Below, piece by piece: positions 2,283 through 56,275 of a DNA stretch of 64,000 nt. A program made the position numbers and the translations under genes. This DNA comes from Aggregatilinea lenta (lineage in GTDB: Bacteria; Chloroflexota; Anaerolineae; Aggregatilineales; Aggregatilineaceae). Location: NCBI RefSeq assembly GCF_003569045.1, contig NZ_BFCB01000003.1:992001-1056000 (forward strand), in the 5' to 3' direction. The notes beneath the pieces were generated by a model that saw nothing but the letters and a program-made list of their open reading frames with translations, had not been told where the DNA came from and did no database searches. The first letter of the stretch is position 1; every line of letters begins with the position of its first letter.

Positions 2283-3170
2283 ATGTCTCAATTTTCCGGT
2301 ACGTGGCCCGCGCTCGTAACGCCGTTTACGGCGGGCAATACGATCAACGTCGATACGGTGGTCAGGCTTGTATCCTACCACCTGGACAAAAACGTGGGCG
2401 GCTTTTACGTCTGCGGCAGCACGGGCAGCGGCGTCTACCAATCCGTAGCCGAGCGTAAGCTGGTCGCTGAAACAGCCCTGAAGACGGTCGCCGGGCGCGT
2501 CCCGGTGGTGGTGCACGTCGGCGCGGTGGCGCTCGTGGACGCGATCGATCTCGCGCGTCACGCCCAGGAACACGGCGCGGCAGCGTTCAGCAGCATCATT
2601 CCGCCGCTCTATCCCGGCATGGATGACGTGCTCGCCTATTATGAAGCCCTGGCGAGCGCCGTGCCCGATTTCTCGTTCTTCCCCTACCTGGCCCGGCCCG
2701 AAGTCAACGCGCTCGATCTGGTGCGCAAGCTGCTGCATCTGCCCAACGTGGTCGGCACCAAGTACACCGGCCCGAACATGCACGAGTTCGGCCAGATCGC
2801 GTCGCTGCGTGACGATGGCTGGTCGGTGTTCTCCGGCATGGACGAGCAGAGCGTCTTCGCGGCGATGTCCGGCTCGTGCGGGCACATCGGCTCGACGCTG
2901 AACTTCATGCCCGGCATCTACGCCGGGATCCGTGCGCACCTCGCCGCCGGGGAATATGACTGCGCGCTGAGCCTGCAGCAGCAAGCCAATGCTGTGACGC
3001 GCGTCCTGCTCAACCACGACTTCGGCGGCACGCTGTACGAGACGATGAGCATCCTCGGCTTCGACTGTGGCAATCCGCGCCTGCCGTGGCAGCCGCTCTC
3101 GGCGGAGGCCAAGAAAGCCTTCCGCGCGGAACTCGAAGCGGCGGGCTTCTGGGACGCGGCGCAGATGTAG
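2283..3170 (+). CDS. Dihydrodipicolinate synthase / N-acetylneuraminate lyase family aldolase
   Basis: 295 residues, about the usual length for this class I aldolase family, which cleaves or forms 2-keto acids through a Schiff base. The expected lysine is Lys160 in GTKYTG; the phosphate/carboxylate loop reads GSTGSG at 45-50 (NAL-like rather than the GTTGE of DapA) and the PY pair at 134-135 is the likely catalytic tyrosine region. The ATG at 2283 is chosen because GGAGG at 2267-2271 is 11 bp upstream; an in-frame TTG at 2265 sits on that ribosome binding site. With a glycyl-radical enzyme and an RraA aldolase downstream, a job in cleaving a 2-keto-3-deoxy acid is likely but unproven. It is probably not lysine biosynthesis. 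Confidence 0.85.
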   Translation: MSQFSGTWPALVTPFTAGNTINVDTVVRLVSYHLDKNVGGFYVCGSTGSGVYQSVAERKLVAETALKTVAGRVPVVVHVGAVALVDAIDLARHAQEHGAAAFSSIIPPLYPGMDDVLAYYEALASAVPDFSFFPYLARPEVNALDLVRKLLHLPNVVGTKYTGPNMHEFGQIASLRDDGWSVFSGMDEQSVFAAMSGSCGHIGSTLNFMPGIYAGIRAHLAAGEYDCALSLQQQANAVTRVLLNHDFGGTLYETMSILGFDCGNPRLPWQPLSAEAKKAFRAELEAAGFWDAAQM

Positions 3171-5616: not shown

Positions 5617-6342
5617 ATGACTACGATTATTTCCGGCGTGCTGGACAAGCTACGCCGCTTTGACACGCCGACGATCTGCAACGTGATCGAGCTGTTCGGG
5701 GTGCGCCCGCACACCGACGGCTTCATGGACGACCGTATTCGGGCGGACTTTCCGGAGCTGCCGCCGATGGTCGGCTTCGCGTCCACGGCGACGTTCCGCG
5801 CGGCGGTTCGCCCGCGTGACGGCGACGCGTACCACCACCTGACGGCGCAGATCGCGCGCTTCGAAGAACTCGACGGGCCGCCGGTCGTGGTGTTTCAGGA
5901 CCTGGACAGCCCGGTGAAGGCGGCGACGTTCGGGGAAATCATGTGCACGTCCTACCAGCGCTTCGGCGCGGTCGGGCTGGTGACGTCCGGCGGCGGGCGC
6001 GACCTGGATCAGGTGCATGCGCTGGGGTTCCCGGTGTTCACCAGCGGCACGATCTGCGCGCACGGCTACTGCAGCATCGTGGATCTGCACGTGCCGGTGC
6101 ACGTCGGCGGCGTGGCCGTGTATCCCAACGACCTGCTGCACGGCGATCTGAACGGCGTGACGACTATCCCGCGCGAGATCGGGAGTGAGGTGGCGGATGC
6201 CGCGGACGAGTTCGTGGCGGCGGAGGCAGTCATTCTCGCGGCGCTGCGCGACGAGACGGCCACGCTCGATACGCTGCGCGAGGCGACCGCCGAATGCGAC
6301 GCGCAGATTGGCGCGATCCGGCAGCGCGTGCACCGGACGTAG
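5617..6342 (+). CDS. RraA-family aldolase/decarboxylase (HMG/CHA aldolase type)
   Basis: 241 residues of the RraA / 4-hydroxy-4-methyl-2-oxoglutarate aldolase family. These are divalent-metal enzymes that cleave 4-hydroxy-2-oxo acids or decarboxylate oxaloacetate. The signature acid-X20-R-D is present as Glu107...Arg128-Asp129, and the C-terminal VYPNDLLHGDLNGVTTIP block is typical. Start ATG 5617 follows GGAGAGAG. It is separated from the upstream glycyl-radical gene by 159 bp rich in short GC repeats without a clear terminator, so it may belong to the same operon. It has no sign of being the RNase E regulator role of E. coli RraA. A second RraA-like gene is at 23259-23951. Confidence 0.8.
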   Translation: MTTIISGVLDKLRRFDTPTICNVIELFGVRPHTDGFMDDRIRADFPELPPMVGFASTATFRAAVRPRDGDAYHHLTAQIARFEELDGPPVVVFQDLDSPVKAATFGEIMCTSYQRFGAVGLVTSGGGRDLDQVHALGFPVFTSGTICAHGYCSIVDLHVPVHVGGVAVYPNDLLHGDLNGVTTIPREIGSEVADAADEFVAAEAVILAALRDETATLDTLREATAECDAQIGAIRQRVHRT

Positions 6343-43228: not shown

Positions 43229-45463
43229 CTACTCGTCGGCCAGAATGCGATTGACGACCATCTGCCGGAATTCCGGCGAGAGGCTGGCGAAGTAGGCGCT
43301 GAAGCCCGTCACGCGCACGACGAGGTCGGGGTGGCGCGTGGGGTCCTCGTGCGCTTCGAGCACCTTCTGTTTGTCGAGAATGTTCATATTGATCTGCGTG
43401 CCGCCCAGCTCGAAGTGCGAGCGGATGAGCTGCGACACGACCTCGACCGCGTTGTCCTGGTCGATGATGCTCATGTCCAGCTCGATTTGCAGCGGCGCGG
43501 TGTTGCCGTAGCCCGGCTGCACGGCGGCGACCGCCGCGGCCATCGCGGTCGGCGCGCCGTCCTTGCGGAAGCCGGGATCGGGGTTCGCGCCGTGTGAGAT
43601 CAGATCCCCGGCGTGGCGACCGTTCGGCGTCGCGCCCAGATGTTCCCCGAACTTGACCGTATAGGCCCACGAAAACAGGCCGGGCAGCATCTTGATGCCG
43701 GAGGGCGTGGGGTGTTCCAGCACCAGCCGCGTGTACATCTGCGACAGGCGCGCGGCGTAGTCGTCGGCCAGCGTGCCGCCGTGCCCGTAGTGCGGCACGT
43801 GCTTCATCATCAAGCGGGCGCGCTCGCCTTCCGGCCCGGCCCAGTTCGTGTCGAGGTAGTGCAGCAGCTCCGCCCAGGTCAGGCGACCTTCGTCCACGAT
43901 GCGCTGCCGGATCGCCGCGAACGAGTCGGCGGTGGTCGCCAGCCCCGCACCGTCCACGGCAATGTTGGTGTAGTCCAGGCCGCCATGTGAGGCGTCCTCG
44001 CCGCGCTCGATAGGGCCGGTGCAGCACAGGTCGAGCACGAGTTCGGGGAAGACCTCGTGCATGTGCGCGATGTGGAAGTCGATGCCCTGCGCGATGGTGG
44101 CGACGGCGCGCCGCAGGTGATCCTCGAAGCGCTGTTCGAGCAGTTCCAGGCTGGGCGTGACGGTCGGATCGGCCAGCATGTCGTGCAGCGCGACGTCGAA
44201 CACGACCGCGAGGTTGATCTTGATCAGGTCGTTCATGCCGTACTCGCGCCCCGGGATGCCGCACCAGTTGCAGCCGGAGTACTTGCGATCACGGCCATCT
44301 TCTAGCGGGTAGCCGTTTTTGGCGAAGTCCGGCACGGTGTTGTCCACGCCGAGGAACTTGGGGATGCCCGTCTTGTCTTCGAGCATGATCTCAACGCCCC
44401 GGCGCAGCAGGGCTTCGCTGGTGCCGCGCCCGACGGCAATCGCCACGTTGGCGGGGATCTTCAGCCAGCGCGCGGCTTCGAGCACCAGGAACGAGACGGG
44501 GTTGGTCACGTCGCGCCCGGCGCGGTCCGGCCCGCCAAGCTGGCAGTACATCGTGTCGCGCAGCAGCATACACGCGATGTGGAAGATCGCCTCGTCGTCG
44601 GTCAGGCGGCCCGCTGCGATGTCGGCCTCGTAATAATCGAGCAGCAGCGTATCGAGCTGGCCAACCGCGCCGCTGCCGTTGTACATGCGCGCGATCATCT
44701 CGTACCACAGCAGCCACTGGCACGCCTCGCGGAACGTCTGCGGCGGCGCGCTGACGATGTGTGCGTTTACCTCGGCAATTTCAAACAGGTTCCGGCGGCG
44801 CTGAGGATTGTCTTCCGCCTCGGCCAGCGCGCGAGCGGCCTCGGCATGGCGTTGGACCCAGTTCTGCGCGCCGAGTACGACCGCTTCCAATCCGTCGTAA
44901 AACGGCTCCTTTGCCGGGCCGTGCGACGCGCGGTTGGCGCGGATGTGATCGAGCAGGCCGCCCCAGCCCAGGCGCAGACCGATGGCGATGTCGGGCGTGA
45001 GGTGCTGCATGCCGCCGATGCCGTGCAGAAGCTGGTACTGTTCCTGCACGGGCTTCAGATGTTCGTAGCTGAGGTCGGGGTTCCAGTGCGGGCGGCGGTA
45101 GGACGTGAAGTTGAGCATGTACGCCCCGGCCAGCGAACTGAGCGGATCGATGGTGACGGGGTGGCGTTCCAGCAGCGCGCGGTAATTGTCGCCTACGGCT
45201 TTGGGGCCGAAGAAACCGCCGCTGGGGTGGTTGCTGGTGACCTCGAAGCCCTTGATGATGCTGTCGCGGATCATGATGCCGGACGGACTCATGACGTGCA
45301 CGTAGTCGCGCTGATCCTCCGGCGGCAGGATTTGCCCCCAGTCGTCGAAGTCCATATCGCCCAGCAGCGTTTGTTTTTCGCGCGTGCAGCGCAGTTTTTC
45401 TTCGCGCAGCGCGTCGATCCGCTGCTGGTAGGTGAGTTCGGTCACATCGAGTGAGAGTGCCAT
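43229..45463 (-). CDS. Glycyl-radical enzyme 2 (pyruvate formate-lyase family), uncharacterised subtype
   Basis: 744 residues, paralogue of the protein at 3229-5457, sharing TYQQRxDALR, SNHPSGG/ANHPSGG, SSLAGAYM, FREACQW and the C-terminal block. Radical glycine is Gly720 in RVTGF; presumed thiyl Cys is Cys398 in YSGCNWCG, 322 residues earlier. As in the first enzyme there is no Glu after the Cys (GCNW, not GCVE). The conserved DLCCTGP (Cys480-481) is a second notable pair. ATG 45463 is preferred by alignment with enzyme 1; a GTG at 45490 overlapping the activase stop is an alternative. Last gene of the operon; activated by the adjacent radical SAM protein. Confidence 0.9.
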   Translation of the reverse strand: MALSLDVTELTYQQRIDALREEKLRCTREKQTLLGDMDFDDWGQILPPEDQRDYVHVMSPSGIMIRDSIIKGFEVTSNHPSGGFFGPKAVGDNYRALLERHPVTIDPLSSLAGAYMLNFTSYRRPHWNPDLSYEHLKPVQEQYQLLHGIGGMQHLTPDIAIGLRLGWGGLLDHIRANRASHGPAKEPFYDGLEAVVLGAQNWVQRHAEAARALAEAEDNPQRRRNLFEIAEVNAHIVSAPPQTFREACQWLLWYEMIARMYNGSGAVGQLDTLLLDYYEADIAAGRLTDDEAIFHIACMLLRDTMYCQLGGPDRAGRDVTNPVSFLVLEAARWLKIPANVAIAVGRGTSEALLRRGVEIMLEDKTGIPKFLGVDNTVPDFAKNGYPLEDGRDRKYSGCNWCGIPGREYGMNDLIKINLAVVFDVALHDMLADPTVTPSLELLEQRFEDHLRRAVATIAQGIDFHIAHMHEVFPELVLDLCCTGPIERGEDASHGGLDYTNIAVDGAGLATTADSFAAIRQRIVDEGRLTWAELLHYLDTNWAGPEGERARLMMKHVPHYGHGGTLADDYAARLSQMYTRLVLEHPTPSGIKMLPGLFSWAYTVKFGEHLGATPNGRHAGDLISHGANPDPGFRKDGAPTAMAAAVAAVQPGYGNTAPLQIELDMSIIDQDNAVEVVSQLIRSHFELGGTQINMNILDKQKVLEAHEDPTRHPDLVVRVTGFSAYFASLSPEFRQMVVNRILADE

Positions 45464-45486
45464 AGGGGTTCCATCCTGCTGATCTG

Positions 45487-46452
45487 TCACTGTGCGTTCG
45501 GGATAATTGCCGAGGGATCTCCGGCGTGAATCATGGCGTGCGCGCGCTGGCTGAGCGCGTCCATCTGGGCCTTGCTGAGCGGCTCCAAGTCGCGGGCGCG
45601 GTTGGCCCGGCCCAGGCCACGATATTTGTCGCCTGCAAGCTGGTGGAAGCGCAGCAGCTGGTAGCGGACTGGCGCGGGCGTCTCGCCACGGACGGCGCAG
45701 GACGCCGCGCGGGCCGCGATCAGGTCGCGCACGAAGCCCGCGATGCGGTCGATGACTTCGGGCGCGTCATTGTAGGTGGGGATGACCGGCGTGCGGAACA
45801 GCAGCGGCTTGTCCGTTTCGGTCGCCAGATGGCGCGCGGTGCTCAGAATGTGTGTGTTAGGCACGCCCGTGCCGTCGCGGTGGCGCTCCGAATCGAGGTG
45901 CTTGAGGTCCATCATGACCAGATCGACCAGGGGCAGCACCGGTTCGAGCGTGGACCAGGGGTAATGCCCCGCCGTCTCGATCGCGGTGTGGATGTCCTCG
46001 GCGCGGCAGCGCGCCAGCAGTGCGGCGGTGAAGTCGGCTTGCAGCATCGGCTCCCCACCGGAAAGCGTCACGCCGCCCTCGTCGCCGTAGAAGCTGCGGT
46101 CCTGCAAAATCTCGGCCATGACCTCGTCCACGGACCACGCACGGCCCACCAGCACGCGTGCGTTGGCGAAACAGTCGTCGATGCACTCGCCGCAGACGGT
46201 GCACTGCTGCGGATCGTACGTGACGACGCCGTCGTCCGTGATCGTGTTCGCGCCGTGCTCGCACAGCGCGACGCACGCCCCGCAGCCGATGCAGCGCTCC
46301 GGGTAGAACTCGATCTCCGGCGGGCGGCGAATCGATTCCGGGTTGTGGCACCAGAAGCAGCGTAGCGAGCAGCCTTTGAGGAAGACCGTCGTGCGGATGC
46401 CGGGGCCGTCGTGCAGCGAAAAGCGCTGGATGTCGAACACTGTGCCGTGCAT
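45487..46452 (-). CDS. Glycyl-radical enzyme activating enzyme (PflA-type radical SAM, two extra ferredoxin clusters)
   Basis: 321 residues. Radical SAM motif C28-x3-C32-x2-C35 (CSLRCFWC) followed by an 8Fe ferredoxin-like insert, C54/57/60/64 and C84/87/90/94, as in glycerol-dehydratase and benzylsuccinate-synthase activases rather than in PFL's own short activase. TLSGGEP follows. It makes the glycyl radical on the downstream enzyme. ATG 46452 starts just before the family opening FDIQRFSLHDGPGIRT. The only such activase in the window, so it may also serve glycyl-radical enzyme 1. Confidence 0.94.
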   Translation of the reverse strand: MHGTVFDIQRFSLHDGPGIRTTVFLKGCSLRCFWCHNPESIRRPPEIEFYPERCIGCGACVALCEHGANTITDDGVVTYDPQQCTVCGECIDDCFANARVLVGRAWSVDEVMAEILQDRSFYGDEGGVTLSGGEPMLQADFTAALLARCRAEDIHTAIETAGHYPWSTLEPVLPLVDLVMMDLKHLDSERHRDGTGVPNTHILSTARHLATETDKPLLFRTPVIPTYNDAPEVIDRIAGFVRDLIAARAASCAVRGETPAPVRYQLLRFHQLAGDKYRGLGRANRARDLEPLSKAQMDALSQRAHAMIHAGDPSAIIPNAQ

Positions 46453-46472
46453 AAAACCGCCTGCTTTCGGGA

Positions 46473-47243
46473 TCAGCAGCCTTTGATCGACAGGCCGCCG
46501 TCTACCTTGATGATCGTGCCGGTAATGAAGGAGGACTCGTCCGAGGCCAGGAAGACGACTAACTGCGCGACCTCGTTGGGCTGGCCGAAGCGGCCCAGCG
46601 CGTGCCAGCTGTTCCACGTGCTGGCGAGTTCTTCGGGGTCGTCCGCTTCCTCGAAGATTTTTTCGTTCATGGGCGTCATGATCGTGCCGGGCGCGATGGC
46701 GTTGACGCGAATGCCGCGCGCGCCGTATTCGACCGCGACCTGCTGCGTCAGCGCGAGCACGCCGCCCTTCGCCGCCGCGTAACCGGCCCAATCCTCGAAG
46801 CCCATCAGCGCCTGCACGGAGGCCATGTTGATGATCGAGCCGCCGCCGGATTTGACCATCTGCGGGATGGCGAACTTGATGCCGCGCCACATGCCGCTCA
46901 GATTGACATTGATGACGCGGGTCCAGTCGTCTTCGCTGATGTCCACGGCGCTGCCGGGGACCGCGATGCCCGCGTTATTGACGTACACGTCCAGCCTGCC
47001 GTAATGCGCGACGGCGGCCTCGACCAGCGCCTGCACGTCGCCGGATAGGCCCACGTCCGCGCAGTGGTAGATCGCGTCCCCACCCGCGCGCCCGATCTCG
47101 GCCACGACGGCTTCGCCCGCCGCGTCGGCGATGTCCGACACGACGACGCGCGCGCCTTCGGCGGCCAGCGCCAGCGCAGACGCGCGCCCGATGCCCTGGC
47201 CCGCGCCCGTTACGATTGCAACTTTTCCATCCAGACGTCCCAT
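46473..47243 (-). CDS. Short-chain dehydrogenase/reductase (3-hydroxyacyl type)
   Basis: 256 residues. TGAGQGIG (12-19), NNAGIA near 90, Ser in INMASV, YAAAK, ending VDGGLSIKG. In this operon, beside a crotonase and a CoA-transferase, oxidation of a 3-hydroxyacyl-CoA or of a hydroxy acid is the natural guess. GGAGATC precedes ATG 47243; 20 bp before the activase start. Confidence 0.9.
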   Translation of the reverse strand: MGRLDGKVAIVTGAGQGIGRASALALAAEGARVVVSDIADAAGEAVVAEIGRAGGDAIYHCADVGLSGDVQALVEAAVAHYGRLDVYVNNAGIAVPGSAVDISEDDWTRVINVNLSGMWRGIKFAIPQMVKSGGGSIINMASVQALMGFEDWAGYAAAKGGVLALTQQVAVEYGARGIRVNAIAPGTIMTPMNEKIFEEADDPEELASTWNSWHALGRFGQPNEVAQLVVFLASDESSFITGTIIKVDGGLSIKGC

Positions 47244-47254
47244 TGTGATCTCCT

Positions 47255-48043
47255 CTATTCCCCCACGAAACGAGGATCGCGTTTTTCGACGAATGCGGCG
47301 ATGCCTTCCTGCGCATCCCGGCTGTTGTAGAGCCGGAAGAGGACTTCCTGTTCGAGCGCCAGCCCGGTCGGCAGGGCCGCGTCCGGCCCGGTGCGGATCA
47401 GGCGCTTCATTTCGCGCGCGGCCAGCGGCGCGATGCGCAGCATGTAGCGCGCCTTGTCCAGCGCGGCGTCCAGCAGCGCGTCCGGCTCGACGACCTCCGC
47501 CGCCAGCCCTAATTCGTAGGCGCGCTGGCCGCTCAGACGTCGCCCGGAGAGCAGTACGTCTGCCGCGGCGTAACGACCTACGGCGCGCGTCAGGCGCTGC
47601 GTGCCGCCGCCGCCCGGCGACAGGCCGAGCGTGCCTTCGGGCAGACCCAGCCGCGCGGAGGTGCTCACCACCAGCACGTCGCAGCACAGCGCGATCTCGA
47701 AGCCGCCGCCGAGCGCGTAGCCGTTGATCGCGGCGATGGTCGGCTTGGGGAAGGCTTCCAGCCAGTCGAACAGGCGGCGGCTGTTGAGCTGGTAGCTCAC
47801 GAAGGCGTTGAAGCCCTGCTGGCTGTATTCGGTGATGTCTGCCCCGGCGACGAACGCTTTGCCGCCCGCGCCAGTCAGGATCACGACACGCACGGCGGGG
47901 TCGCGCTCGATGGTTTGCAAGTGCGCCTCGAATTCGGCCAGCAGCGCCGTGCTGAGCGCGTTCATCTTCTCCGGGCGGTTGAAGGTCAGGACGGCGATCG
48001 CGCCGTCGATGAGATCGTAGGTGACGAGGGTTCCGGTCGCCAT
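47255..48043 (-). CDS. Enoyl-CoA hydratase/isomerase (crotonase) family
   Basis: 262 residues. Crotonase fold with oxyanion-hole segment AFVAGADI, GYALGGGFEIALCCD containing the first catalytic Glu, and LGLPEGTLGLSPGGGGTQRL with the second Glu; both are present, so hydratase chemistry is likely. Start ATG 48043, 2 bp after the CoA-transferase stop, 11 bp before the SDR gene. Suggests a CoA-bound unsaturated intermediate in this pathway. Confidence 0.92.
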   Translation of the reverse strand: MATGTLVTYDLIDGAIAVLTFNRPEKMNALSTALLAEFEAHLQTIERDPAVRVVILTGAGGKAFVAGADITEYSQQGFNAFVSYQLNSRRLFDWLEAFPKPTIAAINGYALGGGFEIALCCDVLVVSTSARLGLPEGTLGLSPGGGGTQRLTRAVGRYAAADVLLSGRRLSGQRAYELGLAAEVVEPDALLDAALDKARYMLRIAPLAAREMKRLIRTGPDAALPTGLALEQEVLFRLYNSRDAQEGIAAFVEKRDPRFVGE

Positions 48044-48045
48044 GC

Positions 48046-49230
48046 TCAGATCACCCCTTCCGCGTGGAACGTCTCGATCTGTTCGGGTGTGTATCCGGCG
48101 GCGCGCAGCACCTCGTCGGTATGCTCGCCGACCAGCGGCGGGCTGAGGCGGATCGTGCCCGGCGTCTCGCTGAAGCGCACCGGCATGCCGATCACTTTGA
48201 TCGGGCCGAGTTCGGGGTGCTCGACGGTTTGGATCAGGTCGTTGTGCGCCACCTGCGGATCGTGCATCAGGTCTTCGAAGTCCTGCACTTTGGCGCACCA
48301 CAGGTCACGGGTGGCGAACAGAGCCAGCCAGTGCTCGCTCGATTCGGTACAGACGCGCGTCTCGATCAGCGGCTTGATCGTGTCGCGCTGGTCGTAGGCG
48401 GCGCGCGGCGTGTCGTAGGCGGCCAGCTCCGGCAGGTCGAGCAGCTCGCCCAGCACGCTCAGGGAGTTCATCGAAATGGCGATGTAGCCGTCCGACGTGG
48501 CGTAAATGCCGAACGGCGCGGCCAGCCACGGGCTGCCGATGCCGGACGCGCTGCGCTCCCATCGGGCGGAGGTGTTCATGAAGCTGGCCAGTTCCTGGCA
48601 CTGCAAGGCGATGGCCGTGTTGAACAGGCTGACGTCTATGCGCTGGCCCTCGCCGGTGCGCGCGCGGTGGAACAGGGCGGTCACGGTCGAAAAGGCCAGC
48701 ATCAGCGCGGTGGTCGCATCCACGAACGACGTCGCGGTCGGGGTGGGCGGCTCGTTCGCGCGCCCGTTCTGCGCCGCGAGGCCCGACATCGACTGGATCA
48801 GCAGGTCCTGGCCGGGGCGCGTCACGTAGGGGCCAGTCGGGCCGTAGCCGCTGCCCGCGACGTAGACGATCGACGGGTTGACGCGCTTGAGGTCCTCGTA
48901 GCCCAGGCCGAGCTTATCCATCACCCCGGGGCGGTAATTTTCGGTCACGACGTCGGCGTCCTTGACCAGCGCGTAAATGATCTCCTTGCCGCGCGGGTCT
49001 TTGAGATTGACCGTCACGCTGCGCTTGTTGCGGTTCATCGCCAGAAAGTAGGGGCTGACGCCGCCCAGAAGCTCGCCCATCGCGGGCAGGGTGCGCTCCC
49101 ATTCACCCACGCCGGGCCGCTCGATCTTGATGATGTCCGCGCCCATGTCGCCCAAAAACTGCGTGCCCCACGGCCCCAGCATCATCTGGGTGAAGTCCAG
49201 CACGCGGACGCCTTCGAGTGCGCTTTTCAT
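48046..49230 (-). CDS. Class III CoA-transferase (CaiB/BaiF family)
   Basis: 394 residues, full length for the family. N-terminal LEGVRVLDFTQMMLGPWGTQFLGDMGADIIKIE, NYRPGVMDKLGLGYEDL, and the ATSFVDATTALMLA segment with the probable catalytic Asp. These enzymes move CoA between carboxylic acids, often in anaerobic degradation (benzylsuccinate, carnitine, oxalate). Here it would activate a carboxylic acid for the crotonase and SDR. GGAGG ahead of the start. Confidence 0.92.
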   Translation of the reverse strand: MKSALEGVRVLDFTQMMLGPWGTQFLGDMGADIIKIERPGVGEWERTLPAMGELLGGVSPYFLAMNRNKRSVTVNLKDPRGKEIIYALVKDADVVTENYRPGVMDKLGLGYEDLKRVNPSIVYVAGSGYGPTGPYVTRPGQDLLIQSMSGLAAQNGRANEPPTPTATSFVDATTALMLAFSTVTALFHRARTGEGQRIDVSLFNTAIALQCQELASFMNTSARWERSASGIGSPWLAAPFGIYATSDGYIAISMNSLSVLGELLDLPELAAYDTPRAAYDQRDTIKPLIETRVCTESSEHWLALFATRDLWCAKVQDFEDLMHDPQVAHNDLIQTVEHPELGPIKVIGMPVRFSETPGTIRLSPPLVGEHTDEVLRAAGYTPEQIETFHAEGVI

Positions 49231-49253
49231 AGCCGGTGGTTGCCTCCGTGTGA

Positions 49254-50189
49254 TCAGCGTAAGGTGTAGTGGTCGGGTTCAGGTTCGCGCAGTAGACCGC
49301 GCGCCAGAAGATCCAACGCGTGGGCGTGGACCATGTTCAGCGCGCGGAACTCCTGCCGCCGCTCCATGTGACGGCAGGTGAATTTCCAGATTGCGCCCAG
49401 GGAGACGGGCGCGGATTGGCCCGCGACAAAACGCACGATCGTGCGCTCCACACTGTCGATGTAGTCGTGCGCGTGCGCGACCAGCGCGTCCGCCGCGGCG
49501 GGCGTCATCGGCGCGAAGTGCGCCGCCAGGATTCGCTGTACGTCCAGCTCGCGCACCAGCCGCCGGATCTTGTCCAGGCTGGCGCGGTAGCCGCCGACGG
49601 TCAGATGGCTGTGGAACTGCGGCCAGTCCAGGCCGGTGATCGCGTCGCCCAGGATCAGCGTGCGCGTGGAGGACTCGAACCAGCCCAGTTCGGCCAGCAT
49701 GTGCCCCGGCAGGCTGAACGCGCGCAGCGTCACGCCGCCGCCCAGGTCGAACAGCACGCCCTCATCGACGTGCAGGTCGAGCGGGACCGGCGCGTCCAGA
49801 AACGAAAACACTTCGTCGCGTAATTCGGGCGTGTCCGGCATGAGGTGCGGGAAGGGCCGCGCGAACTCCTGGTACTGCCGCTCGAAATCGGCGTGCCACG
49901 CGGCGTAATACGACGGGGCGGCGATCAGGCAGCCCGTCGCGGCGCGAAGCTGCGCGTTGCAGCCGATGTGATCGTGGTGCGAGTGCGTGTGCAGCACGAA
50001 GCGCAGATCCTGCGGGGCGACCCCGGCGCGATCCATCGTCGCTTCCAGCAGCGGGAACATGTTCTTTATGCCGCTGTCGATCCAGACGGCGTAGGTCGCG
50101 CCCTTCACCAGGTACACGTACAGCGGCACGACCGGGTCGAGGTCTGTGCGCACCTGGAAGAGGGGGCCGTCAAAGGTGAAGTCCGTCAT
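49254..50189 (-). CDS. Metallo-beta-lactamase-fold hydrolase
   Basis: 311 residues. Metal motif HTHSHHDHIG (H-x-H-x-H-x-D-H variant with the DH pair), then FSLPGHMLAELG and LGDAI, typical of the superfamily; the C-terminal part is helical. It may be a thioesterase or lactonase of the pathway. The start overlaps the upstream stop by ATGA. Substrate not assignable. Confidence 0.88.
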   Translation of the reverse strand: MTDFTFDGPLFQVRTDLDPVVPLYVYLVKGATYAVWIDSGIKNMFPLLEATMDRAGVAPQDLRFVLHTHSHHDHIGCNAQLRAATGCLIAAPSYYAAWHADFERQYQEFARPFPHLMPDTPELRDEVFSFLDAPVPLDLHVDEGVLFDLGGGVTLRAFSLPGHMLAELGWFESSTRTLILGDAITGLDWPQFHSHLTVGGYRASLDKIRRLVRELDVQRILAAHFAPMTPAAADALVAHAHDYIDSVERTIVRFVAGQSAPVSLGAIWKFTCRHMERRQEFRALNMVHAHALDLLARGLLREPEPDHYTLR

Positions 50190-51349
50190 GCCGTCTCCTC
50201 GCGTGCGGTCGATGCGGAACGGGCGCAGGTCTGCGCGTAGAGGTCGGCCAGCGCGGCCATGCAGGCACGCGGATCGGAGCCGTCGCCCAGGTAGCGGTGG
50301 ATCGTTTGCCCAGCCCCCGCCTGAAACGCGGGGAATCCGGCCAGGCGGGGCCGCACGTAGGCAGCTTGCAGGCCCGGATAGACCCGGCGGAAGAAGTCGT
50401 GCGTCAGGCGGTTGGCGTTGTCATCGGTCCACGCTGCCGCGTTACCCGGCTGCCCGCCGGATGCCACGATCCAGGTGCGCGCCGCTTCCGCGCCGCACAA
50501 CCACGCGCCATAGGCGCACGCGGCGGCGGGATGAGCGGTCGAGGCGGAGACGGCGAAACCTGCTCCGCCGAGGATCGCGCCTTGCACGCCCGGCACGGGA
50601 TCGAAGGTCAGGACGTGGCCGGGGGTGTCGTCGCGCGCGTAGGTCACGTAGCAGTAGGCCAGCGGGCAGTAGGCCACGTCGTCGGTGTCGCGCATGTGGT
50701 CGAGCAGCGTAATCGGCGTCCAGTCGAGGCTGGCGGGATGCGCGATCCGGACCAGGGCGCGCAGCAGGATCAGCACGGCGATGCCTGTTGCCTCGGACAC
50801 GAAGCCATCCGGCCCCGATCCAAGCGGTTCGCCCAGACTAGCGCAGACCGTCTGCCAGCTATCGCGGGCGTCGGTGGGTCCCAGCGGGACGGCCAGCCAC
50901 AGGTCGCGCGCGCGCAGATCGTCGCTCAGCGTCAGGACGTCTTCCCAGGACTGCGGGAGCGGAGGATCGGGCAGCAGGTCGGCGCGGCGCACGCTGGATT
51001 GGACCGCCGCGTCCAGCGCCAGCGCCCACTGATGCCCGGCGTAGGCGTAACTGGCGTGGCTCGGCCCGGCGCTCTGCGCGGCGAGCGTTTCCATTTGTGC
51101 CGGAGCGATCCACATGTCGAGCGGCAGCAGGCAGCCCGCCTCCGCCGCCAGCGGGACGTGCGGGTGATCGAGGATCACGAGATCATAGGCAGCGGCGAGT
51201 TCTTCCACGGAGGCGTCGCCGAAGGCCGTCAGCGAGCGCGCATCCCACGTCACGCGGACATCCGTTTGCGCCGCGTAGCGCCGGGCGCTTTCGGCCAGGG
51301 GCGCAGTGCTGCGGGGATGGTCCCAGGTGATGCCGCGTAACTCGATCAT
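50186..51349 (-). CDS. Solute-binding-protein-like protein without signal peptide
   Basis: 387 residues. It opens MIELRGITWDHPRSTAPLAESA and looks like a family 1 extracellular solute-binding fold (DLVILDHPHVPLAA, SWEDVLTLSDDL, GGAGFAVSASTAHPAAACAYGAWL), but has no signal peptide or lipobox; the start follows the permease gene by 11 bp so no longer leader is possible. It is probably cytoplasmic. It may bind a pathway compound inside the cell; its role is unknown. Stop overlaps the hydrolase start (ATGA). Confidence 0.75.
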   Translation of the reverse strand: MIELRGITWDHPRSTAPLAESARRYAAQTDVRVTWDARSLTAFGDASVEELAAAYDLVILDHPHVPLAAEAGCLLPLDMWIAPAQMETLAAQSAGPSHASYAYAGHQWALALDAAVQSSVRRADLLPDPPLPQSWEDVLTLSDDLRARDLWLAVPLGPTDARDSWQTVCASLGEPLGSGPDGFVSEATGIAVLILLRALVRIAHPASLDWTPITLLDHMRDTDDVAYCPLAYCYVTYARDDTPGHVLTFDPVPGVQGAILGGAGFAVSASTAHPAAACAYGAWLCGAEAARTWIVASGGQPGNAAAWTDDNANRLTHDFFRRVYPGLQAAYVRPRLAGFPAFQAGAGQTIHRYLGDGSDPRACMAALADLYAQTCARSASTAREETA

Positions 51350-51360
51350 CGCCGCGCCCG

Positions 51361-52212
51361 TCAGCCTTTCGTGGCCCCGGCGGTCATCCCGGCGACGAAG
51401 TAGCGCTGCAGGAACATGAACAGCACGATCACCGGCACGGACACCATGACGGAACTCGCCATCAATTCGCCGTAGCGGATGCCGTACTGCCCGATGAAGT
51501 CGTTCATGCCGATGGGCAGCGTGCGCATGTCGCGGCTGGAGGTGAACGCCAGCGCGAACAGGAATTCCTGCCACGTCACGACGATGATCCACACGCCGGT
51601 GGCGACGATGCCGGGGCGGGCCAGCGGGACCACCACGCGCACGAACGCCTGCAGGCGCGACGCGCCGTCTACGGTGGCGGCTTCTTCCAGATCGAGCGGG
51701 ATGTTCTCCATGAAGCTGCGGAGCATCCAGATCGAGACGGGTAACGTCAGCGTCAGGTAGGCCAGAATCAGCGACGGGTAGGTGTCGAGCATGTGCAGGT
51801 CGCGCATGATCTTATAGATCGGGATGATCATGGCCGAGACGGGGAACATCTGGGCCAGGATGATCAGCACCAGCAGCGCACTCAATGCCCGGATCTGGAA
51901 GCGGCTGAAGCTGTACGCCGCCAGCAGCCCCACACTGAGCGAAATCGCGGTCGTGGCCAGCGAGACGACGATGCTGTTCAGGAAATAGCGCCGGAACTCC
52001 GGGTAAAAGGCGTTCTGGTAATTTTCAAGGGTTGGGTGATCGGGCCAGAGCTTGGCCGGGATCGCAAAGGGTTCGTTCGCCGGTTTGATCGAGACGCTGA
52101 CCATCCAGAAGAATGGCAGCAGCACGATCAGCGCCAGCAGAATCTCCAGCGCGATCAGGGTGACGTTGCGCATCAAGCGCTGGCGGGGACGCTGGTAGGT
52201 CATGGCGCTCAT
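51361..52212 (-). CDS. CUT1-type ABC transporter permease (MalG type)
   Basis: 283 residues, six membrane segments, EAA loop DLEEAATVDGASRLQAFVRVVVP. ATG 52212 overlaps the upstream permease stop by 4 bp; Met4 (52203) is an alternative. Forms the channel with the upstream MalF-type permease. No ATPase gene in the operon. Confidence 0.92.
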   Translation of the reverse strand: MSAMTYQRPRQRLMRNVTLIALEILLALIVLLPFFWMVSVSIKPANEPFAIPAKLWPDHPTLENYQNAFYPEFRRYFLNSIVVSLATTAISLSVGLLAAYSFSRFQIRALSALLVLIILAQMFPVSAMIIPIYKIMRDLHMLDTYPSLILAYLTLTLPVSIWMLRSFMENIPLDLEEAATVDGASRLQAFVRVVVPLARPGIVATGVWIIVVTWQEFLFALAFTSSRDMRTLPIGMNDFIGQYGIRYGELMASSVMVSVPVIVLFMFLQRYFVAGMTAGATKG

Positions 52213-53144
52213 GAGGCTTTCCCCCGGATGCTCTCGCGCAGTTCGTACAGGTACAGCAGCGCGAACACGGACAGGATCAGCACTGCCACGACGCCATACG
52301 CTGCCGCATCGCCGAACTGGAACTTGCCGAAGCCATAGTCGTAGATAATGGTCGGGAAGATGTGCGTGCTGTCCAGCGGACCGCCGCGCGTGGTGACCCA
52401 GATCATGTCGAAATAATTGAAGGTGAACACGGTCGTCAGGAGCAGGTTGAGCCGGATGATGCCCGAAATGGAGGGGATCACGACGTGGAAGAAGCGCTGC
52501 GCGGCGTTCGCGCCGTCGATCTGCGCCGCTTCGATCTGCTGCTGGTCCACGCCTTGCAGCGCGGCGAGGTAAATCACGGTGGAGAAGGGGAAGCCCTTCC
52601 ACACGGCGGCGACGATCACCGCGACCATCGCCATGCCCGGCTCGGCCAGCCACGCCGTTTTTTGCGACGTGACGCCCAGGCTGATCAGGATCGAGTTGAT
52701 CAGGCCCAACTGGGGATCGTACATGAAGCGCCACAGCAGCGCCGCCACGATGCCCGGCAGCACCCACGGCAGCAGCACGAGGCCGCGCATCAAGCCCTTG
52801 CCCGGCAGGTTCTGGTTGAGCAGCAGCGCCGTCAGCACGCCGAAGATGTTCTGGAACAGGACGACGCTGATGGTCCACACCAGCGAGTTCTGCACGATCT
52901 GCCAGAAGTCGGCGTCGTGCAGCATGTCGCTGTAACGCTGCAAGCCGATGTATTCGGGCGTCGGGTTGAGGAACGACGTCGAAAACAGGCTCTCGTAAAA
53001 CGTGCGGATCATGGGGTAGTACATCAGCGCGATGACCAGCACGGTGGCGGGCAGCACGAACAGGATCGCCAGACCGAGACCGTGCGTTTCTTTGCGCTGG
53101 TGGGTACTGCGTTTGAGGGCGTTCGCCCGGATTTGAGCTGCCAT
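52209..53144 (-). CDS. CUT1-type ABC transporter permease (MalF type)
   Basis: 311 residues, six membrane segments, EAA loop QQIEAAQIDGANAAQRFFHVVIP. ATG 53144 has AAGGACG upstream; an extension to 53171 would run into the intercistronic hairpin. It follows the binding-protein gene by 69 bp. Confidence 0.92.
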   Translation of the reverse strand: MAAQIRANALKRSTHQRKETHGLGLAILFVLPATVLVIALMYYPMIRTFYESLFSTSFLNPTPEYIGLQRYSDMLHDADFWQIVQNSLVWTISVVLFQNIFGVLTALLLNQNLPGKGLMRGLVLLPWVLPGIVAALLWRFMYDPQLGLINSILISLGVTSQKTAWLAEPGMAMVAVIVAAVWKGFPFSTVIYLAALQGVDQQQIEAAQIDGANAAQRFFHVVIPSISGIIRLNLLLTTVFTFNYFDMIWVTTRGGPLDSTHIFPTIIYDYGFGKFQFGDAAAYGVVAVLILSVFALLYLYELRESIRGKAS

Positions 53145-53162
53145 CGAAAGCGTCCTTGAAAA

Positions 53163-53198
53163 GAGGACCACCCGCCGTCAGGGGGCCGGGCGGTCCTC
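53163..53198 (-). terminator. Intercistronic hairpin with short T-run after SBP gene
   Basis: On the - strand: GAGGACCGCCCG pairs with CGGGTGGTCCTC (12 bp, one G-T), followed by TTTTC. It probably acts as a partial terminator that lowers permease relative to binding-protein expression. Confidence 0.6.
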
Positions 53199-53213
53199 GT
53201 GCTCAATGGCGGA

Positions 53214-54449
53214 TTAACCGAGATCGTTAATCTGCGAGCAGGCGTCGGCCACGGCGTCTTCGACGGCGGTGCCGTTGAAGATCGACTGGATCATCTGCTG
53301 CTCGATGTCGGACAGCTCAAGATAGTTCGGCGACAGCGGGCGCGGCTGGGCGTTGTTCAGGTGCTCCAGGATGATGTCCGCGCCTTCACGGTTCTCTTCG
53401 AGGAAGGCCTGGGCCGCCTCGACGTTTGCGGGGATGAGGTCCACGACCTTGCCGTTGACGTCCTTGCTGGTCAGGAACTCGATGAACTTCCAGGCTTCTT
53501 CCTTGTGCTGCGACTGCTCGTAAACCACGAGGTTCCAGCCGCCGTACGTGCCGACCGGGGTCTTGCCTTCGGGCGCGGTTCCGGCCACGAAGCCCCAGTC
53601 CAGATCGCTGCCCTGGAGGGTCGGCTGCTCAAGCGCAGGCCACCACTCGACGCCCACCGAGCCGTTCAGGAAGAGCTGGCGCACGTCTTCGTTCATGGTG
53701 TTCAGCAGACCTTCGGGCGCGTAGGGGATCAGGCTCACGAGGTAGTCGAGCGCTTCCACCGCTTCCGGCTCGTCCAGCGCGCAGGTGCCATCTTCGTGCA
53801 GCACGGCGCCGCCATTGGAGAAGATGAACGAGTCCACCACGACGACGATACTTTCATTCGGGAAGCCGAACAGGCCCACGCCGTACTGCCCGGCGTCGGG
53901 ATCGGTCAGCGCTTCGGCGGCGGCCTTCAGGCCGTCCCAGGTGGTGATGCTCTGCGGATCGACGCCAGCGGCCTCGAACAGCGCGTTGTTATAGAAGCTG
54001 AACTGCCAGACATCCACGTTGAAGGGGATGCCCCACACCTGGCCATCCCACATGGCCGACTGCCACGCGCCGGGGAAGAATGCGTCTTCTGCAACGGTTT
54101 CCGAGTTTGCTATATAATCGTCCAGGGGCATGACCGCACCGGCGACAGCGAATGCAGGGTTCCAAATCTGGTCCACTGTCGAGATATCGGGCGCATTGCC
54201 CCCTTGCACTGCCAGGATCAGGCGGTCCTGGTATTCGGTGTAGGGCACGGTCACCACGTCGATCTTGATGTTCGGGTAGGCCGCTTCGAATTCCTCCACG
54301 GCGGCCTGCTGGTAAGCGCTCAGCCCCGATTCGGTCTGCTGGTTATCCCAGAAAGTCAGCGTGACGACGTCATCGCTTTGCGCGCCGACGGTGCCGAGCA
54401 CCGGAACGGCGATGATCACGATCAAAAGCAACAAACCAAGACGTTTCAT
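53214..54449 (-). CDS. CUT1-type ABC transporter substrate-binding protein
   Basis: 411 residues. Signal peptide MKRLGLLLLIVIIAVPVLGTVGAQS; mature protein opens with VTLTFWDNQQTESG, typical for sugar binders (family 1). No lipobox. AAAGGAC before ATG 54449. It delivers the compound degraded by the operon's glycyl-radical pathway (inference); the family fits sugars, polyols or glycerophosphate-like compounds. Confidence 0.92.
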   Translation of the reverse strand: MKRLGLLLLIVIIAVPVLGTVGAQSDDVVTLTFWDNQQTESGLSAYQQAAVEEFEAAYPNIKIDVVTVPYTEYQDRLILAVQGGNAPDISTVDQIWNPAFAVAGAVMPLDDYIANSETVAEDAFFPGAWQSAMWDGQVWGIPFNVDVWQFSFYNNALFEAAGVDPQSITTWDGLKAAAEALTDPDAGQYGVGLFGFPNESIVVVVDSFIFSNGGAVLHEDGTCALDEPEAVEALDYLVSLIPYAPEGLLNTMNEDVRQLFLNGSVGVEWWPALEQPTLQGSDLDWGFVAGTAPEGKTPVGTYGGWNLVVYEQSQHKEEAWKFIEFLTSKDVNGKVVDLIPANVEAAQAFLEENREGADIILEHLNNAQPRPLSPNYLELSDIEQQMIQSIFNGTAVEDAVADACSQINDLG

Positions 54450-54571
54450 TTGAGGGTCCTTTCAAGCCAAATGAAGAACTATCTAAACACGTGCGACTCC
54501 ACGGACGAGATGGGTTTGGAGCGTCCTCCTCTCTGCTGTGCTACACGACGGATGGCGCGGGGTGGGTGGCG

Positions 54572-56275
54572 TCAGGAACAGGTGGATTGACCCGCGATAA
54601 TGATTTTGATGCCCTGCTGTGTGAACTCGAGACTTTGCGAAGCGCGAATGCCTGTGTCGGTGATGAGCGTATCGATCCGGTCGATGCCGTCTACGTGAAA
54701 CTTGGCGTCCGTGTCGATGACGGTGTGATCGGCCAGCACGATGACTTCGCGCGCGGCCTGGATCATGCTGCGGCGGATGTCCGCCTCGGCTTCGGTCGCC
54801 GACGAGATGCCGAAGGCGCTCGACAGACCGCCCGCGACTAAAAATACCTTATCGGCGTGGAGCTGCTTGAGCAGCAGCCGTGCGCCGCGCCCGACCAGCG
54901 CCTGCGCTTCACGGTCGAGGTTGCCGCCGGTCAGCACGAGGTCGATCTGCGTATCGGGCTGGATCAGCTTGCACACGTCGATGGAGTTGGTGATGACCAT
55001 CAGGTTCTGGCGTCCGCTGAGGTAGCACGCCATATCGGACGTCGCGGTGCCGGTGTCGAGTATGATCGTCTCGCCGTCGCCGACGTACTCCGCCGCGGCC
55101 TTGCCGATCAGGCAACGCAGGTCGCGGATCTCTGCCTTGACGTTGGCGTTGACGTCCACTGCCGAAAACTCGATGCCGAGCGCATCGGCGCGCTGCTGCA
55201 TCGAGCGCGCGAGGTTCTGGTACCACTCGTGCGTGGGGTAGTGGACCACAAACGACAGCTTGTTACGCGGCACGTGGGTCCGGCTTTCGAGCCATGCCGG
55301 ATCGACCAGCGCCGCCAGCCGCGCGGCGTCGAAGGTCCAGCCGCCGTCGTGCTTCGCGTAATAGTCCCCCAGCGTATCCGCCGTCAGCAGCGCGCGCGGC
55401 GTGATGACTTCCGCACCCACGGCCTCGCCCAACCACAACCGCGCGACCAGCTCCACGCCCACGTAGCCCACGATCTCCGGGAACAACGCCATGCACGCCT
55501 TCAGCGGGCCGCCGGGCTGCTGGAGCACGTTGAACAGCGTCGAGCCTTCACCGCCGACGTTGACGGCGATCAGCCGGTCCGTGTCGTAGCGCAGGCCGCT
55601 GTAGGCCTGGATGCCCGCCAGGATCGAGTCGTCGTTGATGGCGAAGATCACGTTGGTGTGCGGGTGCAGCCGCAGCACGTCCGTTGCGATGCGGTACACC
55701 TCGCTGTACGTGCCGCGCCCGTCCACGGTGAGGATCTGCGCATCGTCGCCCAGCGTGGCACGCACGCCGTCCACAAAACCGTCCGTGCGGGCCTTCGTGT
55801 TGGCGAGGTCGTACTGCGAGATGCACAGGATGTGCGCCTGCCCGTCCACATGCGCGCGATAATAGTCGCCGGTCCATTCACCCAACTCGTACCCGGCGCG
55901 GTAGTTGTCCGGTCCCAGGTAGACGGCCCCCGCCTGCGGGGACGACTCGGCGATGAAGGGAATCTGGTTGCGGATGGCGCGCTCGCGGAGAGTGTGAGCG
56001 GTGTTGTTCTGTACGGGCGCGAGGATCAGCGCGTCCGGTTCCAGGTCGGCTTGCCCGGCCTGCGATGCGTCCGCGATGTGCGCGGTGTCCGGCCCGGTGC
56101 GCTTAACCGCGCCGCCATAGGTGCGCCGCAGCAGGCCCTGCGCGTCGAGGCGGCTCAGGTCGCGCCGGATCGTCATCTCGGTGACGTCGCACGCCTGGGC
56201 CAGATCGCGCACGGTGGCGATGCCCTGTTCGTTGACCTGGGTGAGGATGATGGTGTCGCGTTCGCTGGGGATCAT
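54572..56275 (-). CDS. DeoR-family regulator with inserted periplasmic-binding-protein domain
   Basis: 567 residues versus about 255 for ordinary DeoR proteins. Domain order: DeoR winged helix (1-55, IATVRDLAQACDVTEMTIRRDL); type I periplasmic-binding-like region (about 75-305, DALILAPVQNNT, GFVDGV, INDDSILAGIQAY); a second short stretch resembling the opening of another binding domain (338-378); then the DeoR sensor domain (382-548, ILDTGTATSDMA, ITNSIDV, LTGGNL, LADHTVIDTDAKF, ITDTGI). The start is ATG 56275, from the usual DeoR opening MIPSER and from a promoter whose start site falls inside longer frames. Likely represses or activates the adjacent operon. Confidence 0.88.
   Translation of the reverse strand: MIPSERDTIILTQVNEQGIATVRDLAQACDVTEMTIRRDLSRLDAQGLLRRTYGGAVKRTGPDTAHIADASQAGQADLEPDALILAPVQNNTAHTLRERAIRNQIPFIAESSPQAGAVYLGPDNYRAGYELGEWTGDYYRAHVDGQAHILCISQYDLANTKARTDGFVDGVRATLGDDAQILTVDGRGTYSEVYRIATDVLRLHPHTNVIFAINDDSILAGIQAYSGLRYDTDRLIAVNVGGEGSTLFNVLQQPGGPLKACMALFPEIVGYVGVELVARLWLGEAVGAEVITPRALLTADTLGDYYAKHDGGWTFDAARLAALVDPAWLESRTHVPRNKLSFVVHYPTHEWYQNLARSMQQRADALGIEFSAVDVNANVKAEIRDLRCLIGKAAAEYVGDGETIILDTGTATSDMACYLSGRQNLMVITNSIDVCKLIQPDTQIDLVLTGGNLDREAQALVGRGARLLLKQLHADKVFLVAGGLSSAFGISSATEAEADIRRSMIQAAREVIVLADHTVIDTDAKFHVDGIDRIDTLITDTGIRASQSLEFTQQGIKIIIAGQSTCS

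What the first reader, a model, noticed from the sequence alone, without database searches (positions are those of the whole stretch)
43229..56275. Candidate undescribed glycyl-radical degradation pathway linked to CoA chemistry
One - strand run, with several 4-bp overlaps, encodes a regulator, importer, signal-less binding protein, metallo-hydrolase, CoA-transferase, crotonase, SDR, activase and glycyl-radical enzyme, ending at a clear terminator. Known glycyl-radical pathways with a class III CoA-transferase (benzylsuccinate type) use other enzymes around them and no sugar-type importer. Here an imported polar compound may be split or dehydrated by the radical enzyme and the acid product activated, hydrated and oxidised. 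The gene set is seen; the order of reactions is inference.
Basis: partly seen in the sequence, partly recalled or inferred. Interest (0 to 1): 0.78.

Follow-up and report, generated by a model that had tools for sequence, protein, structure and literature searches.

The report
Uncharacterised radical-enzyme family beside CoA genes
A bacterial gene run joins an oxygen-sensitive radical enzyme, from a widespread family that lacks the acidic residue most of its known relatives rely on, to a separate and widely conserved set of CoA genes, so the enzyme family looks new but the proposed single pathway does not hold up across genomes.

Summary
The run is real: eleven minus-strand genes at 43229-56275, with a terminator hairpin after the last. 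The glycyl-radical enzyme (GRE1) scores far below every curated GRE cut-off listed and belongs to a distinct clade in Chloroflexota, Bathyarchaeota, Armatimonadota, Poribacteria and others. Its Cys loop reads G-C-[H/N]-W; Trp takes the Glu position of the CXE motif in 68 of 68 members, against 0 of 35 other GREs (29 have Glu). That argues against ordinary GRE dehydration. A 63%-identical paralogue (GRE2) lies in the same window at 3229-5457 beside two aldolase-family genes. The genome has one GRE activase above cut-off, presumably serving both.

The regulator-importer-CoA genes recur in order in a same-family genome without GRE or activase, an FAH-family gene and an NAD-epimerase standing there instead. 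The signal-less binding protein marks a CoA-transferase/hydratase sugar module in Alphaproteobacteria and beyond. In draws of 396 class genomes the two parts meet only in this genome (1.4 expected; counts are lower bounds). I read the operon as a join of two independently conserved, probably sugar-catabolic modules. The GRE clade is the novelty; its substrate is unknown.

The parts
43229..45490 (-). GRE1, glycyl-radical enzyme with Cys loop SGCNWCGIPGREY and Gly loop RVTGFSAYF (GTG start 45490 or ATG start 45463)
   Evidence: PF02901 and PF01228 above cut-off; model pLDDT 92.9; clade analysis
45487..46452 (-). radical-SAM GRE activase; the only one above the family cut-off in the genome
   Evidence: TIGR02494 320.6 bits against cut-off 174.35; own-genome search
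46473..47243 (-). SDR oxidoreductase
   Evidence: PF13561; counterpart 72% in G001
47255..48043 (-). crotonase/enoyl-CoA hydratase family
   Evidence: PF00378; best PDB matches are acyl-CoA hydratases/dehydratases
48046..49230 (-). class III (CaiB/BaiF) CoA-transferase
   Evidence: PF02515 374.8 bits; nearest solved: succinate--hydroxymethylglutarate CoA-transferase
49254..50189 (-). metallo-beta-lactamase-fold hydrolase, function unknown
   Evidence: PF00753; found at E <= 1e-30 in 3 of 298 class genomes, the window's own included
50186..51349 (-). SBP2, signal-less solute-binding-protein-like protein, marker of a CoA-transferase module
   Evidence: PF13416 37.4 bits against 27; 15 of 15 aligned homologues without N-terminal hydrophobic stretch
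51361..52212 (-). sugar-type ABC permease 2
   Evidence: PF00528
52209..53171 (-). sugar-type ABC permease 1
   Evidence: PF00528
53214..54449 (-). SBP1, sugar-type binding protein with signal peptide
   Evidence: PF01547; N-terminal hydropathy 3.52
54572..56275 (-). regulator: DeoR HTH, inserted Peripla_BP_4, DeoR sensor domain
   Evidence: PF08220, PF13407, PF00455
43177..43205 (-). terminator-like hairpin, T-rich tail below 43177
3229..5457 (+). GRE2, 63% identical paralogue, Cys loop SGCHWSAIPGREY, no activase beside it
1158..2261 (+). URO-D-like protein beside GRE2
   Evidence: PF01208; 80% identical counterpart beside the G001 GRE
2283..3170 (+). DHDPS-family protein beside GRE2
   Evidence: PF00701; 75% identical counterpart in G001
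5617..6342 (+). Aldolase/RraA-family protein beside GRE2
   Evidence: PF03737

Best explanation
The operon is a join of two modules that are conserved apart from each other. Module 1 (regulator, sugar-type importer, signal-less SBP2, MBL, CaiB-type CoA-transferase, crotonase, SDR) imports a carbohydrate-like compound and degrades a derived acid through CoA esters; that it exists as a unit in two genomes, and its core more widely, is shown, its substrate and reactions are inferred. Module 2 is an activase and a GRE of a large uncharacterised clade in which Trp replaces the eliminase Glu. The activase installs the glycyl radical on GRE1 and, being the only one above cut-off in the genome, very probably also on GRE2 (inferred). 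The thiyl radical at Cys407 then most likely acts on a carbohydrate-derived substrate, with Trp409 stacking on it, cleaving a C-O or C-C bond by a route that does not use the CXE glutamate (inference from residue conservation and sugar-leaning neighbourhoods). In this lineage module 2 sits where module 1 of a same-family genome carries an FAH-family gene and an NAD-epimerase, so GRE1 may supply an alternative late step of the same breakdown (speculative).
For: Separate conservation: G001 has the nine module 1 genes in the same order at 53.6-72.0% identity, then FAH and epimerase, no GRE or activase in the stretch read, and its own GRE on another contig. In draws of 396 class genomes, 17 have SBP2 and 33 the GRE clade, own genome included in both; overlap 1, expected 1.4. 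17 SBP2 regions from 16 other genomes contain 0 GREs; 73 GRE loci contain 0 SBP2, MBL or crotonase homologues of the operon at E <= 1e-10. SBP2 homologues in 13 annotated plasmid records that I picked out of 145: CoA-transferase directly adjacent in 10, one gene away in 1, within 6 kb in 2. Clade: Trp 68 of 68, and 21 of 21 in a second set that partly repeats the first; control 0 of 35. Activase homologue in 35 of the 73 GRE loci. One activase above cut-off in the genome, two PF02901 genes.
Against: Both modules lie on one strand with short gaps and one terminator-like site, which suggests co-expression here, so a shared pathway in this organism is not excluded. The chemistry is inferred; nothing here shows a substrate. 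Sugar genes near the GRE are frequent but not dominant: of 121 neighbour genes scanned, 12 are GFO/IDH/MocA, 7 URO-D, 4 SBP_bac_1, 2 fucosidase. DHDPS or RraA aldolases are beside only some members (DHDPS homologues in 3 of 73 loci, L018, L066 and L071). In the 17 Chloroflexota SBP2 regions, several of them short, only 7 hold a CaiB homologue, so the SBP2-CaiB link is looser there than in the plasmids; and the MBL of G350 stands without any other module gene. The genome tallies score only the top 2 to 7 candidates per genome, so they are lower bounds, and I took the two draws of 396 to be the same set without checking. All 73 named clade records are titled as metagenome assemblies or bins.
Confidence: 0.6

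Rival explanations
1. One integrated GRE-CoA pathway: the imported compound is cleaved or dehydrated by GRE1, and the acid product is then activated by the CoA-transferase, hydrated by the crotonase and oxidised by the SDR.
For: Single directon with 2-42 bp gaps or 4-bp overlaps from SBP1 to GRE1 and one terminator-like site; codon bias of GRE1 and activase matches the other genes (GC3 0.88 against 0.83-0.90), so no sign of very recent foreign DNA. In one Bathyarchaeota locus (L071) a distant CaiB follows GRE, activase and one further gene.
Against: Genes 1-9 occur as a unit without GRE in G001; no co-occurrence beyond chance in the genome draws; GRE clade neighbours elsewhere are different. 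CaiB-like genes are common in relatives anyway (49 of 101 at E <= 1e-60).
Confidence: 0.2
2. GRE1 is an ordinary PflD/glycerol-dehydratase-like eliminase whose base has simply moved, for instance to the invariant Glu416 or to residue 408, so the reaction is a standard radical dehydration or ring-opening.
For: Closest solved structures are PflD, glycerol dehydratase and propanediol dehydratase, tied at Z 37; 8id0 is titled as PflD with 1,5-anhydromannitol-6-phosphate. Glu416, Asp421 and His163 are each kept in 68 of 68. GRE2 lies beside DHDPS- and RraA-family genes, which would suit a 2-keto-3-deoxy acid product.
Against: [quoted passage not shown] Identity to these structures is 22-25%. Whether Glu416 faces the pocket was not tested, and the aligned GKE of several CXE-type control GREs shows that a Glu there is not special to this clade.
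Confidence: 0.3
3. GRE1 is a pyruvate-formate-lyase-like or fumarate-adding enzyme.
For: GREs of these kinds lack the CXE Glu (general knowledge); 5 of 35 control GREs have Ser there, two of them with CCVS loops as in PFL.
Against: No paired Cys (window loop GCNW; the Cys at 410 is in 5 of 68); Z 29 against PFL and 30-32 against fumarate-adding enzymes, below the 37 of the PflD group; the PFL equivalog scores 88 against a cut-off of 994.
Confidence: 0.05

Closest known systems
PflD / YbiW-type GREs (solved with 1,5-anhydromannitol-6-phosphate and 1,5-anhydroglucitol-6-phosphate, by PDB title)
   Same: Best sequence and fold match (8yjo Z 37.5, 685 residues, rmsd 2.8); a PGR-Y stretch after the Cys loop; sugar-derived ligand.
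   Different: 22-25% identity; Glu of GCVE is Trp; scores far below the curated cut-offs.
B12-independent glycerol and propanediol dehydratases
   Same: GRE barrel fold, tied in Z (37.3 and 37.1); cognate activase beside.
   Different: CXE Glu replaced by Trp.
Benzylsuccinate-type GRE operons with class III CoA-transferase
   Same: GRE, activase and a class III CoA-transferase in one operon (the benzylsuccinate arrangement is recalled); benzylsuccinate CoA-transferase subunits are among the CaiB matches (9fn0).
   Different: GRE Z about 31; best CaiB match is the succinate--hydroxymethylglutarate enzyme; sugar-type importer; the CoA genes are conserved without the GRE.
SBP/CaiB/MaoC-or-crotonase sugar loci on plasmids of Alphaproteobacteria, a Bacteroidota and a Streptomyces
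   Same: Signal-less SBP-like protein near a CaiB/BaiF transferase, often with hydratase, SDR and sugar transporter; FAH in 2 of 13.
   Different: No GRE and no MBL listed in the 13 stretches (that gene table is incomplete); other regulators.

Membership tests
Glycyl-radical enzyme superfamily | C-terminal glycyl loop R-V-x-G-[YF]-S | tested here: met
   RVTGFSAYF in GRE1; Gly729 in 67 of 68, the other row has a gap; PF01228 51.5 bits against 22.2
Glycyl-radical enzyme superfamily | Catalytic Cys loop and GRE barrel fold | tested here: met
   Cys407 in 68 of 68; model Z 37.5 to PflD
Glycyl-radical enzyme superfamily | Cognate radical-SAM activase | tested here: met
   45487-46452, TIGR02494 above cut-off
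[quoted passage not shown]
   C-[HN]-W in 68 of 68; Glu in the 5 solved chains whose alignments were shown and in 29 of 35 other GREs
GRE eliminases (CutC, IslA, HypD, glycerol dehydratase, PflD type) | Score above a curated NCBIfam cut-off | tested here: not met
   Best: PFL2-3 277.8 bits against 678.2; HypD 213 against 1100; CutC 188 against 1050; none of the 12 families listed is over its cut-off
Pyruvate formate-lyase | Adjacent catalytic Cys pair | tested here: not met
   GCNW/GCHW; CCVS in two control GREs
X-succinate synthases | Fumarate-binding pocket and small subunits | not tested
   Only fold distance measured: Z about 30-32
Class III CoA-transferase | PF02515 over gathering score | tested here: met
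   374.8 bits against 23.3
ABC-transporter solute-binding proteins (SBP2) | Export signal | tested here: not met
   Highest N-terminal hydropathy among 15 homologues 1.28, against 3.52 for SBP1; starts as annotated or as chosen by me
ABC-transporter solute-binding proteins (SBP2) | SBP_bac sequence similarity | tested here: met
   PF13416 37.4 against 27; sugar-binding proteins of the PDB, best E 1.1e-16

The most novel reading that the evidence does not exclude
The GC[HN]W clade is a mechanistically new kind of glycyl-radical enzyme: a carbohydrate-acting radical lyase in which a Trp holds the sugar over the thiyl radical in place of the eliminase Glu, used by uncultured Chloroflexota, Bathyarchaeota and others, with two sub-branches that can share one activase. 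In this operon it replaces the FAH-type C-C hydrolase of a CoA-dependent sugar-acid pathway, making it a GRE doing C-C cleavage within such a pathway.
Probability: 0.2. Interest if true: 0.82.

Novelty: new variant of a known kind. Interest (0 to 1): 0.62.

Why it matters
[quoted passage not shown] It is a direct test bed for what else glycyl radicals do, probably in sugar breakdown by uncultured anaerobes. The by-product is a second lead: a signal-less solute-binding-like protein that travels with class III CoA-transferases in distant phyla and is annotated as a transporter part.

Tried and rejected
A 12-base DNA pattern for the Cys loop was far too short: 394 of 400 genomes matched, so it says nothing. 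Literature searches for the clade or for the SBP-CaiB link (open-access library only) showed no title or abstract start that names either; one search listed 40 of 237 papers. [quoted passage not shown] PMC11528403 was searched for six terms and held none of them. PMC8473560, PMC12583861, PMC6453916 and PMC11574389 were seen as passages. The anhydrosugar link of PflD and YbiW is taken from PDB titles and recall; no paper holding both search terms was in the library.

Rows dropped: GRE fragments of 600 residues or fewer (in L069, L072, L075, L077, L078, L083, L084; L088 gave no GRE call) were left out of the 68 (L070's cut-off GRE of 621 residues was kept). Several rows repeat one genome: L016/L015, L018/L014 and several of L124-L143 against L022-L082; in the tree L055_4249 and B_L137_3357 are the same gene. 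The control of 35 is 28 loci plus 7; one search scored at most 4 candidates per genome, and L159 and L168 are the same gene. The neighbour scan used 121 of 185 genes, in locus order. Many loci end at contig ends, so absence of neighbours is weak for each locus alone. The co-occurrence count uses draws that did not return G001, which has both parts on separate contigs.

The idea that GRE neighbours point to fucose breakdown was not kept as a claim: a cluster that I read as GH29 occurs in 6 loci, but only 2 of 121 scanned neighbours match the fucosidase family. Recent foreign origin of module 2 was checked by GC3 and not supported.
Full report
1. What is there. Refined starts give two certain 4-bp overlaps (PERM1/PERM2, SBP2/MBL) and one possible (activase/GRE); other gaps from SBP1 on are 2-42 bp and the regulator is 122 bp away. 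A terminator-like hairpin lies 23 bp after the GRE stop. The operon codes for two binding proteins: SBP1 with a signal peptide, and SBP2 without one. There is no importer ATPase gene.

2. The GRE. GRE1 matches the GRE superfamily but no named family: the best curated model, PFL2-3, scores 277.8 bits against a cut-off of 678.2, and CutC, HypD, sulfopropanediol dehydratase, indoleacetate decarboxylase and PFL all fall far short. A genome-collection scan with four seed proteins found 73 loci in records titled Chloroflexi, Anaerolineae, Bathyarchaeota, Armatimonadetes, Poribacteria, Ignavibacteria, Terriglobia, Planctomycetota, Verrucomicrobia, KSB1 and others, at 53-64% identity for full-length members except one at 40%. 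Of 68 proteins longer than 600 residues (66 plus the two of the window), all have G-C-x-W at the Cys loop: C 68, W 68, His at x in 64 and Asn in 4, GRE1 among the four. In the five solved GREs whose alignments were shown, the residue aligned to Trp is Glu. In 35 other GREs of the phylum (28 loci, 7) it is Glu 29, Ser 5, Thr 1, Trp 0. A midpoint-rooted tree of 25 clade members and these 35 gives a single clade with support 1.0 and a long stem. [quoted passage not shown] The clade therefore fails a defining feature of the eliminases while keeping the superfamily features.

3. Structure. The model of GRE1 from 45 clade sequences has mean pLDDT 92.9. VIA-align places PflD, glycerol dehydratase and propanediol dehydratase together at Z 37, CutC and HypD at about 35, fumarate-adding enzymes at 30-32 and PFL at 29; Foldseek also puts PflD first. 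So by fold it is nearest the eliminases, at 22-25% identity for the tied group. Coordinates could not be inspected, so pocket geometry is untested.

4. Branches and paralogues. A second sub-branch with loop V-G-C-N-W-T-[AC]-L-P-G-x-E-Y occurs in 9 of the 20 regions and once beside the first: in L137 a first-branch GRE, an activase and a second-branch GRE lie in one run with sugar-type permeases and a protein weakly matching GH42. At least 33 of 396 class genomes have the clade at E <= 1e-150 (only two candidates per genome were scored). The window genome has two PF02901 genes, both in this window, and a single activase above the family cut-off, so GRE2 (3229-5457), which has none beside it, presumably uses the activase of the operon. 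GRE2 lies with URO-D-like, DHDPS-family and RraA-family genes; in G001 the counterpart run is URO-D, DHDPS, activase, GRE.

5. The CoA part. In G001, of the same family, nine genes from regulator to SDR are kept in order at 53.6-72.0% identity, followed by an FAH-family gene and an NAD-dependent epimerase, with no GRE or activase in the 19.9 kb read. G300 has SBP1, both permeases, MBL, SDR, a Lar_N protein and a gene that I read as URO-D-like, without CaiB, crotonase or GRE in the 15 kb read; G350 has the MBL alone. SBP2 homologues occur in 145 plasmid records. Of 13 annotated ones that I inspected, 10 have a CoA-transferase directly adjacent, 1 one gene away and 2 within 6 kb; companions include MaoC or crotonase, SDR, GFO/IDH/MocA (5 of 13), L-rhamnose mutarotase (2), FAH (2) and sugar ABC or TRAP transporters. 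In 17 SBP2 regions of 16 other Chloroflexota genomes a CaiB homologue is present in 7, several regions being short. None of the 15 aligned SBP2 proteins has a hydrophobic N-terminus like SBP1's, and 37 alignment columns are invariant, with T-W-x-H-x-R near the start. This looks like a conserved cytoplasmic protein rather than a transporter part, often tied to CoA-transferases.

6. Are the two parts linked? In draws of 396 class genomes, 17 have SBP2 and 33 the GRE clade; only the window genome is in both lists, with 1.4 expected. These are lower bounds, and I assume that the two draws are the same set. The 17 SBP2 regions hold no GRE. Of the 73 GRE loci none has an SBP2, MBL or crotonase homologue at E <= 1e-10, and 2 have a distant CaiB. 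In one of these, L071 (Bathyarchaeota), a DHDPS-family gene, GRE, activase, a gene that I read as an amidohydrolase and CaiB follow each other, the only independent hint of a GRE-CaiB link; CaiB-like genes are common in relatives (49 of 101). The operon is thus best read as a lineage-specific join. Whether the joined parts share a substrate in this organism is open.

7. Function. Neighbours of the clade elsewhere are mixed but lean to sugars: of 121 neighbour genes scanned (of 185 within two genes of a GRE), GFO/IDH/MocA 12, URO-D 7, SBP_bac_1 4, ABC permease 4, and glycoside-hydrolase families in small numbers. Trp is a usual partner of sugar rings (general knowledge), and the nearest solved relatives include a PflD with an anhydrosugar phosphate. 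I therefore favour a carbohydrate-derived substrate. C-O against C-C cleavage is undecided: the missing CXE Glu disfavours the standard elimination, while aldolase-family genes beside GRE2 would suit a dehydrated keto-deoxy acid.

8. Verdict. Observation confirmed. Interpretation partly supported: the enzyme is unnamed and unusual, the pathway as a unit is not conserved. New variant of a known kind.

Noticed in passing
window 50186-51349: SBP2 belongs to a conserved signal-less solute-binding-like family often found next to class III CoA-transferases in Alphaproteobacteria, and also in a Bacteroidota, Streptomyces and Chloroflexota, annotated as a transporter binding protein.
   Followed up: yes
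window 54572-56275: Regulator with a periplasmic-binding-protein domain inserted between a DeoR helix-turn-helix and a DeoR sensor domain; a 53.6% identical counterpart precedes the same genes in G001 (L104 16261-18672).
   Followed up: partly
window 1158-2261 and 25287-26342; L104 18978-19901; L102 832-2007: URO-D-like proteins recur beside the GRE clade (7 of 121 scanned neighbours) and, by my reading of the L102 and L104 genes without a family search, beside the CoA module; role unknown.
   Followed up: partly
L137 92-9805: Two GREs of different sub-branches share one activase in a run with sugar permeases and a large protein weakly matching GH42.
   Followed up: partly
L129 7386-8945 and L130 11487-13052: Second-branch GRE lies next to genes resembling a HAD phosphatase and a glucosamine-6-phosphate deaminase (my reading of the sequences, no family search run).
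   Followed up: no
L013 1689-17161 and window 1-1161: Several sulfatase-like genes and, by my reading, FAD-dependent oxidoreductases and an oligopeptide-type importer lie upstream of GRE2, suggesting a sulfated-glycan locus.
   Followed up: no
window 16389-18248: One protein holds two near-identical copies of a sugar-binding domain in tandem after what looks like a single signal peptide.
   Followed up: no
L074 1143-3440: The most distant full-length member (40%, Clostridiales record) loses the glycyl motif in frame near its end; frame error or real variant not resolved.
   Followed up: no
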